From Acidobacteriota bacterium (GTDB lineage Bacteria > Acidobacteriota > Terriglobia > Bryobacterales > Bryobacteraceae): a DNA stretch of 64,000 nt. The notes under the pieces are model-generated. The model did not search any database. It worked only from the letters and a program-made list of their open reading frames with translations, and was not told the origin of the DNA. Shown piece by piece: positions 2,276 through 7,346 of the stretch. The position numbers and the translations under genes were made by a program. Location of the stretch: the NCBI GenBank assembly GCA_025352795.1, contig JANXSF010000109.1:1-64000 (forward strand), read 5' to 3'. Each line of letters opens with the position of its first letter. Position 1 is the first letter of the stretch.

Positions 2276-2358
2276 AGAATTGCCCAGTTTATCATTGACT
2301 GGGTGATACGGCTGGGGTGAATCAGTTAGTCCTGCCTCATGTCCCGGTTTTTCGATTT

Positions 2359-2748
2359 TCACCGAATCACTTCAATGTGGATGCCAAGTGCAGGCAGGGC
2401 TCCCCAATTCCGATCTGCTGTAACCGCCGTAACCCCAAGCTTTCTGGCTGTAGCCAGACATGCCCGGTCACCAAGGGAAAGGCCATGGGTCCAACCCAGC
2501 GGACTCAAGTCGGCTGCAGCTTCGGCCAGTTCGTAATCCCAGGGAATGACGCGTAAATTCAATCCGGCAAGATTCGCCGTGGCCAACTGGAAGCTGGCAC
2601 CCATGCGAATCTGTCGTGACAGAACCTCGGAATAGTTGACGGCGGAAATGGCCGCACGGCCCAACAGACTGGTAACACGCTCATGGCCGATTTCGACGAA
2701 CAGAGCGGCCAGAAGCGCAGATGCGTCCAGTACAACTGCTGGCTTCAC
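2359..2748 (-). CDS. vapC: PIN-domain ribonuclease toxin (VapC-like)
   Basis: The 129-residue protein shows the PIN-domain acidic positions: D8 in VVLDASALLA, a Glu in the NYSEVLSR segment near residue 40, the Asp in SLGDRACLATA near residue 93, and the Asp in AVTADRNW near residue 111. These coordinate magnesium for RNA cleavage in VapC toxins. Its start overlaps the stop of the upstream AbrB-type antitoxin by four bases, the usual translational coupling of a vapBC operon. Full length for the family, with all catalytic residues present, so it is probably functional. Confidence 0.9.
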   Translation of the reverse strand: MKPAVVLDASALLAALFVEIGHERVTSLLGRAAISAVNYSEVLSRQIRMGASFQLATANLAGLNLRVIPWDYELAEAAADLSPLGWTHGLSLGDRACLATARKLGVTAVTADRNWGALPALGIHIEVIR

Positions 2749-2990
2749 TCGCTCTCAGCCTCTTGTTTACGTTCGGCCAGGAATTCGTCCACCACGCACT
2801 CTCCCGATTTTTTGAGAAGGCTCAATGCATGTTGCGCTTGCTTCAAAGCTTGCCTGGGAGTGGAAAGGCGCAGCTCTCCATCTTCCAGACGCACGATAAC
2901 TTCGGAGCCTTCCGATAATCCGAGGGACTCCCGGAAACGGTGGGGGATCATGATTCTTCCCGCTCTATCGAGTTTTGCGGCTGTTTGCAT
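2745..2990 (-). CDS. vapB: AbrB/SpoVT-type antitoxin (VapB-like)
   Basis: The 81-residue protein opens with a swapped-hairpin AbrB DNA-binding domain: LDRAGRIMIPHRFRESLGL followed by GSEVIVRLEDGELRLSTP (residues 7-47). The acidic, helical C-terminus (ALSLLKKSGECVVDEFLAERK) would wrap the toxin. It is the first gene of a two-gene toxin-antitoxin operon, overlapping the PIN toxin gene by four bases. VapB antitoxins usually repress their own promoter. The short gap to the decayed toxin at 2994 is only a few bases, so transcription may also enter from upstream. Confidence 0.88.
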   Translation of the reverse strand: MQTAAKLDRAGRIMIPHRFRESLGLSEGSEVIVRLEDGELRLSTPRQALKQAQHALSLLKKSGECVVDEFLAERKQEAESE

Positions 2991-2993
2991 TAT

Positions 2994-3236
2994 TTACCAC
3001 TTTAACATAGAAGTGGGAAGCCAGATCTTAAGAAGCAGGTTGCGGCTGGTAGAGCTTCCCTTTGATTTCACTCTTATACATTCGCGCTTGAGCCAGATCA
3101 TAAGCAGCTTGCATTCGTAGTAGTCCACCAATTCAACATCGTCCGCATTGCCGGTGGCAAAGCTGAAAATAATCCGCCAGTTGGCGCGAACTGTCACTGA
3201 CCATAGGCCCTGAAGATGAAAACTGGCCATGCACAT
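2994..3236 (-). pseudogene. degraded HigB/RelE-family toxin remnant
   Basis: The frame contains GLWSVTVRANWRIIFSF and DDVELVDYY, the C-terminal core of HigB-type toxins (which usually read 'G.WSV.V.GNWR..F.F...DV.LVDYH' and stop). Three things point to decay. The N-terminal half of a normal roughly 92-residue toxin is missing. The segment between the FHL and QGLWSV lacks the usual 'HPLKG' residues. Beyond DYY the frame runs on for about 35 unrelated residues. No HigA-like antitoxin follows; the VapBC operon begins just downstream instead. The remnant abuts the 3' end of the STAND gene (3262), so an insertion or deletion at that junction may have removed the toxin's 5' half. Confidence 0.6.
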
Positions 3237-3261
3237 TTGGTGGAAAACCGTATCATCTGGA

Positions 3262-5703
3262 TTAGGGATTGAACTTGAATTTTTTTCGGAGTTTGGCGGC
3301 TTCGTGACCTCGGCTTAGTGACTGGAGCGCGTTGTGATAGCTTTTGGCGATTCCAATGGCATCGGGATGGTCGGTCCCGTGGACCTTTTCGTAGATTGCT
3401 AGTGCACGTGCGAATAAGGGAATTGAACGAAGGAAATTGCCTCGGCTTGCGTAAAGTCCGGCGAGATTGTTTAAGCTTATGGCGGTGTCAGGATGGTTAG
3501 GTCCGAGAACCGTTTCCCTTATCTGCAGGGCGCGTTTATACAAAGGCTCGGCTTCCTTATATTGCCCTTGTTCGTGATAGTTCCCCGCGAGATTTCCAAG
3601 GCTGGTGGCGGTGTCCGGATGGTTAGGTCCGAGTGCGGTTTCCTTTATCTCCAGCGCGCGCTGGAACAAGGGTTCAGCTTCCTTGTACTGGCCTTGTTCG
3701 TGATAGTTTCCCGCGAGATTCCCAAGGCTTGTGGCGGTGTCAGGATGGTTGGGTCCGAGTGCGGCTTCCTTTATCTCCAGCGCGCGCTGGTACAAGGGTT
3801 CAGCTTCCTTGTACTGGCCTTGGGCACGATAGTTTCCCGCGAGATTGTTTAAGCTTGTGGCGGTGTCCGGATGGTTAGGTCCGAGTACCTGTTCTCTTAT
3901 CCGAAGCGCACAATGAACCAGCGGCTTAGCCTCTGCGTACCGTGCCCTGTCGCCGAGATACCAAGCAGTTTGATGGAGCAAATAGGCTGAACCTTTAGAC
4001 TCGATAGGAAGACTCACAATATCCGCAGCCAGGATTTTAGCGTGCGGCAGAAGTCGCTCACATGCTGCCCAGTTATTGAACTCGACTTCCTCCGGGAAGC
4101 ACTTGGCAATGGCTTCGGCATTTCGCTCAATCCATCGTTTACTGGCCTCATCATCCAGCGTGTCTTTCACAACAAGCTGAACCAGTCGATGGATGCTGAC
4201 GGTCCCTGTACTGGGATTGCGCCAAATCAGAGAGTAGCGGATGGCATTCGTTACAGCGTCTCGAAATTCTATAGGTGACTCGCCGTCGGCAATTAGCATT
4301 TCCTCAGGAATCGCATCCGGTGCCAGGAAAGCGGCCATACGAAGGATTTCTTTGGCCCGTTCGCCTAATTTTTCCAGGGCGAGCGTGAAAGTGCGGGTTA
4401 CCGTACCTTGTTCACCATTGGCGCGTAACGTCTTTCCGTCGCCCTTGTAAAGCTTGAGATACTCGGCAGGGGACAACTTTGACTCATCAATGTAGGCCCC
4501 GGCTTGTTCCAATCCAAGAGGGAGCCCCTCGAATTCTACGGAGATATCTTTTGCGGTTGCTAGGTCCTCAGCGCTTGGATTGTCGCACTTAACGCGCTCC
4601 AATAGGAATTTTGCGCCTTCGTCGGGAGTCATCCGGGGAAGTTCCAATCCCTGGGCGTAATTTCCGGTGTGTTGTAACTGCGTGGTGATCAGCACGTGGC
4701 CGGTTTTGCTGGTGGGGATCCAATCGTTGGCTACCTCCCAGTGATCCACGTTGTCCAGAATGAGTAACCAATTCCCGTTGGACTCGAACCAACGCTTGGC
4801 CGCTGCGGCTGCTTTGGTGATGTCCTTTTCCTCTCTCTGCGGGAGGTTGAGGAGCCCGGCGAATGAGGCGAAGCCGGAAATCAGATTGTCTCTGGAATCG
4901 GCGACGGTCCAGAAACCGGTGGTGTATTCGTTCCGGTAAAGGTCGGCGTACTTTAAGGCTGTCTTGCTCTTGCCCAGGCCGCCCAGGCCTTTGATGGATT
5001 GCGTGAGAGCGGCGGGCTGATTGTTTTTCGTGAGCGCCGTGCGCAGGTTTTGGATGTACTCTTTGCGACCGAAGAAGTTGGGGTCGGACGGAGGGATGTT
5101 CCAGATGGGCTCTGCGGGGTTGGGCTCGCTGGTTGATTGCGGCGGTGGTGCCGGTTGGGCTTGAACATCCAGAAAGCGGCGCAAGTCCGCTATAGCTTGA
5201 GTGGCCTTTGTAGCGAATTCTGCTGCGCCGTTGAATGTGGCATAGACTCGATTTGCTTGCGTGCCCGGCTTCATCGGTTTCGCATTTTCACGAAAAGCGT
5301 TTAGCTTTTCTGATTTGATATCCGTTTCACGGTCCGCCTTACGCACAGGATGATCGTCTCCCATGATGAAAACCAGGATAGGCCGTCCAAGCCGCTGAGC
5401 CTCGTTGAATTCGAGTTCCGTAATGGAAAGCTTGTCGGGATTGCGCACCGGACACTCTGGAGTTTGACCGTACCTCGAACCAATGACCGCGCAATAGGCT
5501 GATGAATTCTGCACCATTTGCAGCGAGGAAGCCACCACATCTACATCTGCTTTTGCTGAATCGTTTTCCATCGCGATATCCGATAGGCCCTGGCCTTTGA
5601 TGGCTCGAATCAGCGCGGCGCGGTGCTCCTGCAAATCGGTGAAGGTGCTGGAGACCATGACGCCTGGATATAGGCGCGGTGCCGGATTGGGATCGTTTGG
5701 CAA
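3262..5703 (-). CDS. STAND NTPase: DUF4062 + NB-ARC + TPR repeats, candidate immune sensor
   Basis: The 813-residue protein has three parts. Residues about 12-115 form a DUF4062 domain (VMVSSTFTDLQEHR, IGSRYGQTP, LSITELEFNEA). Residues about 205-400 form an NB-ARC NTPase with P-loop GLGGLGKSKTA (about 239-249), Walker B LLILDNVD (313-320), a VLITTQ sensor strand and the GLPLGL motif (393-398). From residue 599 come four to five 42-residue kinesin-light-chain-type TPRs. This is the layout of bacterial STAND proteins, several of which sense phage proteins and trigger cell death. The start must be the TTG at 5703: a stop lies two codons upstream, and the next ATG (5658) would remove the first strand of DUF4062. 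It neighbours toxin-antitoxin genes. A role in defence is inferred, not shown. Confidence 0.88.
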   Translation of the reverse strand: MPNDPNPAPRLYPGVMVSSTFTDLQEHRAALIRAIKGQGLSDIAMENDSAKADVDVVASSLQMVQNSSAYCAVIGSRYGQTPECPVRNPDKLSITELEFNEAQRLGRPILVFIMGDDHPVRKADRETDIKSEKLNAFRENAKPMKPGTQANRVYATFNGAAEFATKATQAIADLRRFLDVQAQPAPPPQSTSEPNPAEPIWNIPPSDPNFFGRKEYIQNLRTALTKNNQPAALTQSIKGLGGLGKSKTALKYADLYRNEYTTGFWTVADSRDNLISGFASFAGLLNLPQREEKDITKAAAAAKRWFESNGNWLLILDNVDHWEVANDWIPTSKTGHVLITTQLQHTGNYAQGLELPRMTPDEGAKFLLERVKCDNPSAEDLATAKDISVEFEGLPLGLEQAGAYIDESKLSPAEYLKLYKGDGKTLRANGEQGTVTRTFTLALEKLGERAKEILRMAAFLAPDAIPEEMLIADGESPIEFRDAVTNAIRYSLIWRNPSTGTVSIHRLVQLVVKDTLDDEASKRWIERNAEAIAKCFPEEVEFNNWAACERLLPHAKILAADIVSLPIESKGSAYLLHQTAWYLGDRARYAEAKPLVHCALRIREQVLGPNHPDTATSLNNLAGNYRAQGQYKEAEPLYQRALEIKEAALGPNHPDTATSLGNLAGNYHEQGQYKEAEPLFQRALEIKETALGPNHPDTATSLGNLAGNYHEQGQYKEAEPLYKRALQIRETVLGPNHPDTAISLNNLAGLYASRGNFLRSIPLFARALAIYEKVHGTDHPDAIGIAKSYHNALQSLSRGHEAAKLRKKFKFNP
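3406..3909 (-). repeat. four 126-bp tandem repeats encoding TPR units
   Basis: Four consecutive 126-bp units encode 42-residue TPRs, each containing LGPNHPDTA.SL.NLAG and, in three of them, GQYKEAEPL. The second and third units are nearly identical even at the DNA level, and the first is close, whereas the fourth is more divergent. The similarity suggests recent duplication or gene conversion within the sensor part of the STAND protein. Confidence 0.9.
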
Positions 5704-6137
5704 TTGTCAGTGGACGGAGACCGCTCAACGACCGCCCCGATTCAACATATCATAAGCTCCCAGGGTTCGTTCTTCCAGGTGACGGTGCAGTTCTCCATGC
5801 CCTTTCAGGATCACGAATCTCCAACGTCATCGGGGCTGCACTTCCAGACGCAGGATCGGATGCTTGAATCTGCGAGACACTTTCAGTGCCGCGTCGGAAT
5901 CTTCGGTGTTGCATGGACAGCAATATCGATCGGGTGCTGATAGGCTATGCCTCCTGTAGGATAGCCGTAGCCTTCCCCTTCACAGTCGGCACCCATGGGG
6001 CATTGGTTTCTTGCGCAGGTTCACGAAGTCACCTGACTGGCGACGGAACAGATCATTCCTGCGAGGCACCATTTTAGGTTCTGCCAGAATACCGTGTTTG
6101 CGTGAAAAAAGAACCACCTTCCGAACAAGTGGATCCG
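5704..6137. other. 434-bp intergenic region upstream of the STAND gene
   Basis: I find no convincing gene. The minus strand shows short frames, including an Arg-rich 55-codon one starting near 5912 and a 30-codon one near 6070, neither recognisable. They could be decayed coding sequence. The promoter of the STAND gene should lie here, since the upstream gene (6138-7346) has the same direction, but I see no clear -35/-10 pair or terminator. Confidence 0.4.
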
Positions 6138-7346
6138 TTAAAAGCTATAGCGCAAGCCCAACAGAGCGTGCGAATTTCGCCGGTACTGGCCCAAAAAATC
6201 AGTTGCCGTTCCGCGAATCCAACTAAATGCTGCGACAGCTTTCCAATGCTGGTTGAGCGATTGCGTATACTCTGTCTTCAACCAACTGCCATCGCCGTTT
6301 TGTCGCACAGCACCTTCAAAGGCAAGGGTGCGGTACGGATCAATGGTCAAAGATGCTCTTCCTACAAACGCTTTGGCCAATCCCCGATCTGGTGAAAATC
6401 CCAATGAATTGCGGCGTTGCGTGACCACTTCACCAGCGTATCCACCAACAAACGACCACTCCCCCAATTGCCGTTCCAGTTGGATTACGTACTGCATGTA
6501 ATTATCGGCGGACTTGGTGGACGACGTGAAATAAGCCGATTCCCCTTTCACCGTAAACCAGCGCAAGGGCACCGCCGCCGTCGCCCCGTACATGCGCATT
6601 TGAGCAAAGTATTTGTTGATGTTCACCGTCAGTGTTTGAGAGAGCGAGGCATTGAACAATGGCAGGTTGTTGCGACCTTCATAGAACGCCACAGAATATT
6701 CGTAGCCCTTCCCTGAATGGTTCCAACGGACGCCACCCGCACCACCGCCTGGGAAATCGGTTGTGCCATTTCGAAACACAAACCCTTGTGGCAGCACCGC
6801 CCAACGTTGATTCAGAAGTGGTGTCCGGCTGGGCGTGAACCGCAACTGCCAGACAAGATCCAGCGTATCCGAGCCTTTCTCCAGGGAAAGCCGCGCAGCA
6901 GGCACACCCAGAAAATCACTATCCACCACGTTCAGAAAATCCTTCGGTGCAAAGCGATCCATAGGATTGAACACATCGGCCTTTCCCCATCGGATAAACT
7001 GCTTACCGAATTCAAACGTCAACGGACCTTTGTGTGCCACCGCGCTTAGCCTGCGCAATCCAAAGGCAGGGCGCAACAAACTACGATCTTGCCAATCAAA
7101 ACGCCATTCCCGTTCGGTAGTGCGGTGCGAATCGGTACGCAAGTCAACGGCACCATGAATCCGCAACCAGGGGAGCAGTTTTTGAGAAGCTTCATAACGC
7201 AACAAGCTATCTACAACCGCTTGGCCGCTATCCCCTGGTGCAGTTTGTGGAAATACAATCAGTCTGGTTTCAAAGTAGCCGCGCTGCTGAAAATCCTGGC
7301 CATTCAGTAAATGGCCAAGCAAAACAATTGGGATAAGAAGTTTCAT
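6138..7346 (-). CDS. outer-membrane beta-barrel protein (DUF1302-like) of an ABC export operon
   Basis: The 402-residue protein begins with a signal peptide (MKLLIPIVLLGHLLNGQ) and ends in an aromatic residue (LLGLRYSF), typical for insertion by the BAM machinery. Alternating short strands fill the rest. The segment FGKQFIRWGKADVFNPMDRF (residues about 110-130) resembles a motif in DUF1302-type barrels. The start codon overlaps the stop of the LolA-like gene by four bases, placing it last in an operon with a LolD-like ATPase and a permease. It may be the outer-membrane acceptor or exit of that transport path. I could not assign a ligand. Confidence 0.7.
   Translation of the reverse strand: MKLLIPIVLLGHLLNGQDFQQRGYFETRLIVFPQTAPGDSGQAVVDSLLRYEASQKLLPWLRIHGAVDLRTDSHRTTEREWRFDWQDRSLLRPAFGLRRLSAVAHKGPLTFEFGKQFIRWGKADVFNPMDRFAPKDFLNVVDSDFLGVPAARLSLEKGSDTLDLVWQLRFTPSRTPLLNQRWAVLPQGFVFRNGTTDFPGGGAGGVRWNHSGKGYEYSVAFYEGRNNLPLFNASLSQTLTVNINKYFAQMRMYGATAAVPLRWFTVKGESAYFTSSTKSADNYMQYVIQLERQLGEWSFVGGYAGEVVTQRRNSLGFSPDRGLAKAFVGRASLTIDPYRTLAFEGAVRQNGDGSWLKTEYTQSLNQHWKAVAAFSWIRGTATDFLGQYRRNSHALLGLRYSF

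What the first reader, a model, noticed from the sequence alone, without database searches (positions are those of the whole stretch)
3262..5703. DUF4062/NB-ARC/TPR STAND protein as candidate anti-phage sensor
Seen: a complete DUF4062 domain, an NB-ARC ATPase with intact P-loop and Walker B, and tandem TPRs. Known: many bacterial STAND proteins with this domain order of effector, NTPase and sensor repeats defend against phages. Inference: DUF4062 may be the effector and the TPRs the sensor. It stands next to a VapBC operon and a broken HigB toxin, as in a defence hotspot. It is not among the well-described Avs types I can name.
Basis: partly seen in the sequence, partly recalled or inferred. 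Interest (0 to 1): 0.68.

Follow-up and report, generated by a model that had tools for sequence, protein, structure and literature searches.

The report
Bacterial immune-receptor-like protein with NADase cassette
This bacterium (relatives point to Acidobacteria) carries one intact gene built like a plant or animal immune receptor, whose front end belongs to a family recently shown to kill phage-infected cells by destroying NAD+, and related sequences show that this front end and the receptor body are each swapped between proteins.

Summary
Window 3262-5703 (-) encodes an intact 813-aa protein: DUF4062 (aa 15-102), proline-rich linker, NB-ARC (P-loop aa 239-246, Walker B 312-320), DUF7779 and a kinesin-light-chain-type TPR array. 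DUF4062 is no longer of unknown function: a 2026 preprint (PMC13174449) shows it is a TIR-like NADase used against phages (Swarozyc) and in human TEP1. Here the predicted fold matches TIR domains and nucleotide N-glycosidases, and the catalytic Glu of KpSwz (E97) aligns to E98, invariant in 41 aligned sequences. The receptor body resembles Apaf-1 (Z 27.9).
New here: the protein is a chimera. Its DUF4062 cassette is mostly 46-68% identical to cassettes in several phyla, but all readable ones carry other C-termini (six types). Its NB-ARC/TPR body is 26-51% identical to proteins carrying SEFIR, TIR or SIR2 instead. The gene sits in an accessory 3.8-kb insert absent from a same-genus genome.
One caveat: the sensor-1 arginine of all nine relatives is Gln (Q342).
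Verdict: probable NLR-like NADase immune receptor; new variant of a known kind; phage defence untested.

The parts
3262..5703 (-). DUF4062-NB-ARC-DUF7779-TPR STAND protein, 813 aa, TTG start
5149..5703 (-). DUF4062 TIR-like cassette plus helical tail (aa 1-185); candidate catalytic Glu98 at 5410-5412
4129..5118 (-). NB-ARC/STAND NTPase region (aa 196-525); P-loop 4966-4989, Walker B 4744-4770, GLPL 4489-4527, IHR 4177-4200, sensor-1 Gln342 codon 4678-4680
4147..4380 (-). DUF7779 (aa 442-519), follows the NTPase core in this protein family
3265..3945 (-). kinesin-light-chain-type TPR array (aa 587-813), candidate sensor; 126-bp units at 3475-3886
2994..3260 (-). probable HigB toxin remnant (last third only), no recognisable HigA
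2745..2990 (-). AbrB/MazE-type antitoxin
2359..2748 (-). PIN-domain (VapC-type) toxin
2298..6137 (.). accessory insert holding all of the above; in the same-genus genome G001 the same flanks enclose 0.73 kb with a different gene

Best explanation
It is a bacterial NLR-like immune receptor. The TPR array senses an infection cue (most likely a phage protein; inferred). Binding releases the NB-ARC switch, which oligomerises (inferred from Apaf-1 and plant NLRs). [quoted passage not shown] Shown here: intact domains, TIR/N-glycosidase fold by prediction, invariant Glu, Apaf-1-like body by prediction, exchange of cassette and body between proteins, accessory location.
For: Catalytic Glu aligned to KpSwz E97, which is E97A in the solved chain; invariant in 41 aligned sequences. 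Model pLDDT 85.7 matches DNPH1 Z 13.3, RUN1 TIR bound to NAD Z 12.3, SPARTA TIR 11.7, SARM1 TIR 11.5. Body model matches Apaf-1 Z 27.9 over 445 residues and the STAND-TPR protein 6mfv as top Foldseek hit. The same body in relatives carries SEFIR, TIR, SIR2 and Mrr, several scoring on PADLOC bSEFIR, ThsB and ThsA models. Body relatives occur in four viral contigs, two beside a portal-like gene. Published: DUF4062 NADase and abortive infection; TPR-type sensors in Avs5.
Against: Not in a defence island, and relatives are not clearly enriched near PADLOC genes. Human NPHP3, with the same domain order, showed no NADase activity in vitro. The sensor-1 Arg present in all nine relatives is Gln. One body relative carries a DNA-binding regulator domain instead. 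No cassette found in phage or viral collections.
Confidence: 0.6

Rival explanations
1. Same machinery (TPR-triggered NB-ARC oligomerisation driving a TIR-like NADase) but the trigger is not a phage: a stress, self/non-self or programmed-death receptor.
For: Many cassette relatives lie among housekeeping genes such as uvrA, secA and mutL-like genes rather than defence genes. No phage or viral copy of the cassette found. A body relative carries Trans_reg_C, so the body also serves regulation.
Against: Characterised DUF4062, SEFIR, TIR and SIR2 effectors in such settings are antiphage (own knowledge); patchy, exchange-prone distribution resembles defence genes.
Confidence: 0.2
2. The DUF4062 cassette cleaves another nucleotide (a nucleotide N-glycosidase like DNPH1 or MilB) rather than NAD+.
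For: Top structural matches are DNPH1 (Z 13.3) and MilB (Z 12.4), level with TIR domains.
Against: Two DUF4062 members tested biochemically (KpSwz, TEP1) hydrolyse NAD+, and this cassette aligns with KpSwz around the catalytic Glu.
Confidence: 0.1
3. The receptor is degenerate or locked off: the NTPase switch no longer works because sensor-1 Arg is Gln342, so the gene is a relic or a regulator of other receptors.
For: Arg in 9/9 relatives, Gln here; the same genome holds another DUF4062 gene that looks truncated.
Against: The whole 813-aa frame, P-loop, Walker B and catalytic Glu are intact; no frameshift; the tandem TPR units are complete.
Confidence: 0.07
4. It belongs to the FxSxx-COOH RiPP system, as the NCBIfam best hit says.
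For: NF040586 scores 342 bits, above its 300 cut-off.
Against: The hit covers only the shared NB-ARC/TPR body (aa 203-807, profile 1-622 of 830), and the FxsB maturase TIGR04269 is absent above cut-off from the genome.
Confidence: 0.03

Closest known systems
Swarozyc (KpSwz, PDB 10wc; PMC13174449)
   Same: DUF4062 TIR-like domain with the same catalytic Glu position; alignment E 1e-5
   Different: Swarozyc ends in an HTH/winged AUX domain that binds phage portal; this protein has NB-ARC, DUF7779 and TPR instead
Human NPHP3 / TEP1 / NWD1
   Same: DUF4062 beside a STAND NTPase; the TPR array hits the Pfam TPR_NPHP3 model (153.6 bits, cut-off 100), so the domain order is that of NPHP3
   Different: NPHP3 was inactive on NAD+ in vitro; homology of the whole architecture was not tested
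Avs/AVAST STAND proteins (e.g. Avs5, PMC12931631)
   Same: Effector-NTPase-repeat sensor plan; TPR or Sel1 sensors
   Different: nSTAND3 NTPase and another N-terminal effector in Avs5; no Avs PADLOC model hits this protein
SEFIR/TIR-NB-ARC-TPR proteins of related bacteria (L016, L018, L020)
   Same: Body 34-51% identical
   Different: N-terminal effector is SEFIR or TIR, not DUF4062
DUF4062-STAND proteins of several phyla (L068, L070, L072 ...)
   Same: Cassette mostly 46-68% identical
   Different: A different, unnamed P-loop NTPase and C-terminus, about 1050 aa

Membership tests
DUF4062 (PF13271) TIR-like NADase family | Pfam score above cut-off | tested here: met
   63.8 vs 24.7 bits
DUF4062 (PF13271) TIR-like NADase family | catalytic Glu equivalent to KpSwz E97 | tested here: met
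   E98, invariant in 41 aligned sequences
DUF4062 (PF13271) TIR-like NADase family | TIR/NDT-like fold | tested here: met
   predicted model, Z 11-13 to TIR, DNPH1 and NDT
DUF4062 (PF13271) TIR-like NADase family | NAD+ hydrolysis | not testable with these tools
   needs biochemistry
Swarozyc | C-terminal HTH/winged AUX domain binding portal | tested here: not met
   C-terminus is NB-ARC/DUF7779/TPR; the KpSwz match ends at aa 142
STAND / NB-ARC NLR-like receptors | P-loop, Walker B, GLPL and MHD-type His motifs | tested here: met
STAND / NB-ARC NLR-like receptors | Pfam NB-ARC cut-off | tested here: inconclusive
   22.7 vs 23.5 bits alone; the family profile hits NRC1 at 69.6 and Apaf-1 at 59.3 bits
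STAND / NB-ARC NLR-like receptors | sensor-1 arginine (TTR/TSR) | tested here: not met
   TTQ342; Arg in nine relatives. A frequent motif, not required for membership
STAND / NB-ARC NLR-like receptors | Apaf-1-like architecture | tested here: met
   model Z 27.9 over 445 residues, rmsd 6.3
Avs (AVAST) types 1-5 | match to Avs models | tested here: not met
   only a generic TPR model in PADLOC
FxSxx-COOH system TPR protein (NF040586) | model score | tested here: met
   342 vs 300 bits
FxSxx-COOH system TPR protein (NF040586) | FxsB-family maturase in the genome | tested here: not met
   best 26.7 bits vs cut-off 370
Defence-island gene | other defence systems close by | tested here: not met
   only a VapBC pair and a toxin remnant adjoin; the other PADLOC hits in the window are eight models on one gene each, mostly generic domains, not localised further
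Antiphage system | protection against phages | not testable with these tools
   no experiment

The most novel reading that the evidence does not exclude
The roughly 180-aa DUF4062 NADase cassette is an interchangeable effector part that has moved between at least seven receptor types (unnamed STAND NTPase, NACHT-FGE, AAA-TPR, TPR without NTPase, Sel1, SDF symporter, and here NB-ARC-TPR) in several phyla, mostly outside defence islands. That would make it a large, largely uncatalogued class of bacterial NLR-like receptors, of which this protein is an NPHP3-ordered example.
Probability: 0.5. Interest if true: 0.66.

Novelty: new variant of a known kind. Interest (0 to 1): 0.52.

Why it matters
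The DUF4062 NADase paper tested bacterial proteins with short HTH-type sensors; in its main text DUF4062 beside a STAND ATPase is described for human proteins. Bacterial proteins with that effector on an NLR-like body give a simple, testable model of how a NACHT/NB-ARC switch could control such a NADase, a question left open for TEP1, NWD1 and NPHP3. The cassette swapping also gives a way to find receptors that defence-island searches miss.

Tried and rejected
Defence-island enrichment: 10 cassette loci (123 genes) against 10 control regions on the same contigs (122 genes) gave 74 versus 10 PADLOC models at 1e-15. In the genes rescanned one by one, many models fall on one kinase (18 models, L104) and on a type II methyltransferase; the two methyltransferase genes counted probably come from Chlorobiaceae loci that share a neighbourhood. 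The rest was not resolved gene by gene, so I claim no enrichment. FxSxx RiPP system: rejected. Cassette in viruses, phages or plasmids: none in viral contigs or INPHARED; the plasmid hits listed are DUF4062 genes at about 30-32% identity. Full-length alignment for one structure model: body rows were aligned onto the DUF4062 columns (A6), so the cassette and body were modelled separately. Diversity-generating retroelement beside the Chlorobi DUF4062-NACHT-FGE genes: a simple motif search for a reverse transcriptase found no convincing one. Direct repeats of 9 bases or more at the edges of the 3.8-kb insert: none found in the stretches compared. KpSwz itself did not appear in the fold search; its entries may post-date that library.

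Full report
Observation. The minus-strand ORF 3262..5703 is intact and 813 aa long. Pfam finds DUF4062 (aa 15-102, 63.8 bits), NB-ARC (22.7 bits, 0.8 under the cut-off), DUF7779 and a strong TPR array, including the nephrocystin-3 TPR model (153.6 bits, cut-off 100). The TTG start is supported by the relative L017, whose ATG aligns to it. The TPR units are 126-bp tandem repeats with 87% matches, and their closest solved relatives by sequence are kinesin light chain TPR domains. Overall GC shows no sharp break between cassette and body (0.53 and 0.52-0.55; window 0.525), though third-position GC is higher in the NB-ARC part (0.69 against 0.51-0.56 elsewhere outside the linker).

What DUF4062 is. 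A 2026 preprint (PMC13174449) reports that DUF4062 is a TIR-like NADase: KpSwz (Swarozyc) protects E. coli by abortive infection, senses phage portal with an HTH-type AUX domain and needs E97; human TEP1 is active; NWD1, NWD2 and NPHP3 were inactive in vitro. Sequence comparison with the solved KpSwz chain, which carries E97A, puts its mutated residue against our E98. E98 is invariant in 41 aligned sequences. An AlphaFold2 model of aa 1-185 (pLDDT 85.7) matches nucleotide N-glycosidases and TIR domains at similar level: DNPH1 Z 13.3, MilB 12.4, RUN1 TIR with NAD 12.3, SPARTA TIR 11.7, NDT 11.6, SARM1 TIR 11.5. These enzymes cleave N-glycosidic bonds with a catalytic Glu (my own knowledge, except where the preprint says so). 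NADase activity is therefore likely but not shown here.

The receptor body. A profile of the NTPase region hits AfsR, the plant NLRs NRC1 and NRC4, and Apaf-1. A model of aa 196-813 (pLDDT 83, pTM 0.62, four-sequence alignment) matches full-length Apaf-1 at Z 27.9 over 445 residues and KLC1 TPR at Z 26.5; by Foldseek E-value the top hit is a STAND protein with TPR sensor, 6mfv. P-loop, Walker B, GLPL and the IHR motif are intact. The sensor-1 arginine, Arg in all nine relatives compared, is Gln342 (codon CAG) here. From my own knowledge the corresponding Apaf-1 residue is Arg265, and the top structural match 3shf is the R265S mutant; I could not confirm its functional effect from the held papers.

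A chimera of two exchangeable parts. A scan of one genome for each of 84,980 species with the cassette found 51 loci. Of the 40 relatives aligned in A2, 39 are 46-68% identical to our cassette and one is 30%. Record titles name Acidobacteria, Planctomycetes, Chlorobi, Verrucomicrobia, Proteobacteria, a Cyanobium and Eremiobacterota; many are metagenome bins whose titles may be wrong. None of the proteins whose C-terminus could be read matches our NB-ARC/TPR body. Their C-termini form six types: an unnamed P-loop STAND-like NTPase (23), NACHT plus FGE-sulfatase (11), AAA/TPR (2), TPR-like without an NTPase match (2), Sel1 repeats (1) and a sodium:dicarboxylate symporter domain (1). Our body, in turn, is 26-51% identical over the NTPase region to proteins bearing SEFIR, TIR, SIR2 and a weak trypsin-like domain, and further relatives carry Mrr or a transcriptional-regulator DNA-binding domain. 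Several of these effectors score on PADLOC bSEFIR, ThsB and ThsA models. On the cassette tree our protein lies in a weakly supported group (SH-aLRT 80) of seven rows with four architectures; the tree needs six architecture changes, the fewest possible for seven labels. Searches of 101 relatives, 396 genomes of the phylum and 399 of the class (sets that overlap) found no other protein matching the whole aa 1-560 stretch.

Genomic setting. In a genome of the same genus (G001) the same two flanking genes enclose 0.73 kb with a different gene; in the window they enclose 3.84 kb with VapBC, the HigB remnant and the receptor. So the locus is accessory. The receptor's 3' end overlaps the open frame of the remaining third of HigB on the same strand, as if the gene had replaced the toxin's front; this is inference. 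No other multi-gene defence system is visible in the window. For relatives, PADLOC hits near the cassette do not resolve into clear gene-level enrichment, and many neighbours look like housekeeping genes. The preprint reports about 20% of bacterial DUF4062 genes in defence islands, over half with at least one defence neighbour. Body relatives do occur in four viral contigs, two of them beside a portal-like gene and one beside a SIR2-like gene.

Mechanism and limits. Best-supported reading: TPR sensing, NB-ARC oligomerisation, NAD+ hydrolysis by clustered DUF4062 domains, arrest or death of the infected cell. Shown: parts, folds by prediction, catalytic residue, swapping, accessory location. 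Inferred: activity, trigger, oligomerisation, antiphage role. It is not a Swarozyc in the strict sense (no AUX domain), matches no Avs model and is not an FxSxx system.

Novelty. DUF4062 antiphage NADases, STAND receptors with NAD-directed effectors and TPR sensors are all known. The DUF4062/NB-ARC/TPR combination, and the extent of cassette exchange, I did not find described in the papers searched, which hold open-licence papers only; the preprint's supplementary figures, which show DUF4062 architectures, could not be read.

Noticed in passing
L153 (G000 C116) 6832-7305 (-): A second DUF4062 gene in the same genome, 157 aa, strongly like KpSwz (E 8e-38) but ending after the TIR-like domain; no intact AUX-like frame follows. 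Possibly a truncated Swarozyc.
   Followed up: partly
L068, L070, L072 and 20 other loci: DUF4062 fused to an unnamed NTPase family, mostly about 1050 aa (motif like GG[AS]GKSMLTW), with no Pfam or PADLOC name for the NTPase in the members scanned, found in several phyla.
   Followed up: partly
L120 and L121 (viral contigs): An NB-ARC/DUF7779 protein directly beside a phage portal-like gene and a MuF-like gene, as phage cargo.
   Followed up: no
L119 1261-4850 (viral contig): TIR-NB-ARC-TPR gene followed with overlap by a SIR2-like gene that matches ThsA models.
   Followed up: partly
L118 4362-7355 (viral contig): Weak trypsin-like domain fused to NB-ARC/TPR, near integrase-like and terminase-like genes.
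   Followed up: partly
L098 9992-12118: DUF4062 fused to a sodium:dicarboxylate symporter domain, an odd membrane-bound arrangement.
   Followed up: no
L074, L079, L087, L094, L100: Chlorobiaceae DUF4062-NACHT-FGE genes in what looks like a shared, variable locus, with a 1722-aa WD40 protein (L074), an Mrr-NACHT protein (L087) and a type II methyltransferase (L087) in some strains.
   Followed up: partly
plasmid search: 156 of 164 plasmids with a DUF4062 gene are from Staphylococcus, many of them about 20 kb; about 31% identity to this cassette, so a different subfamily.
   Followed up: no
window 2994-3260: HigB remnant whose open frame runs on into the receptor gene's 3' end, suggesting the receptor gene landed in a toxin gene.
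   Followed up: partly
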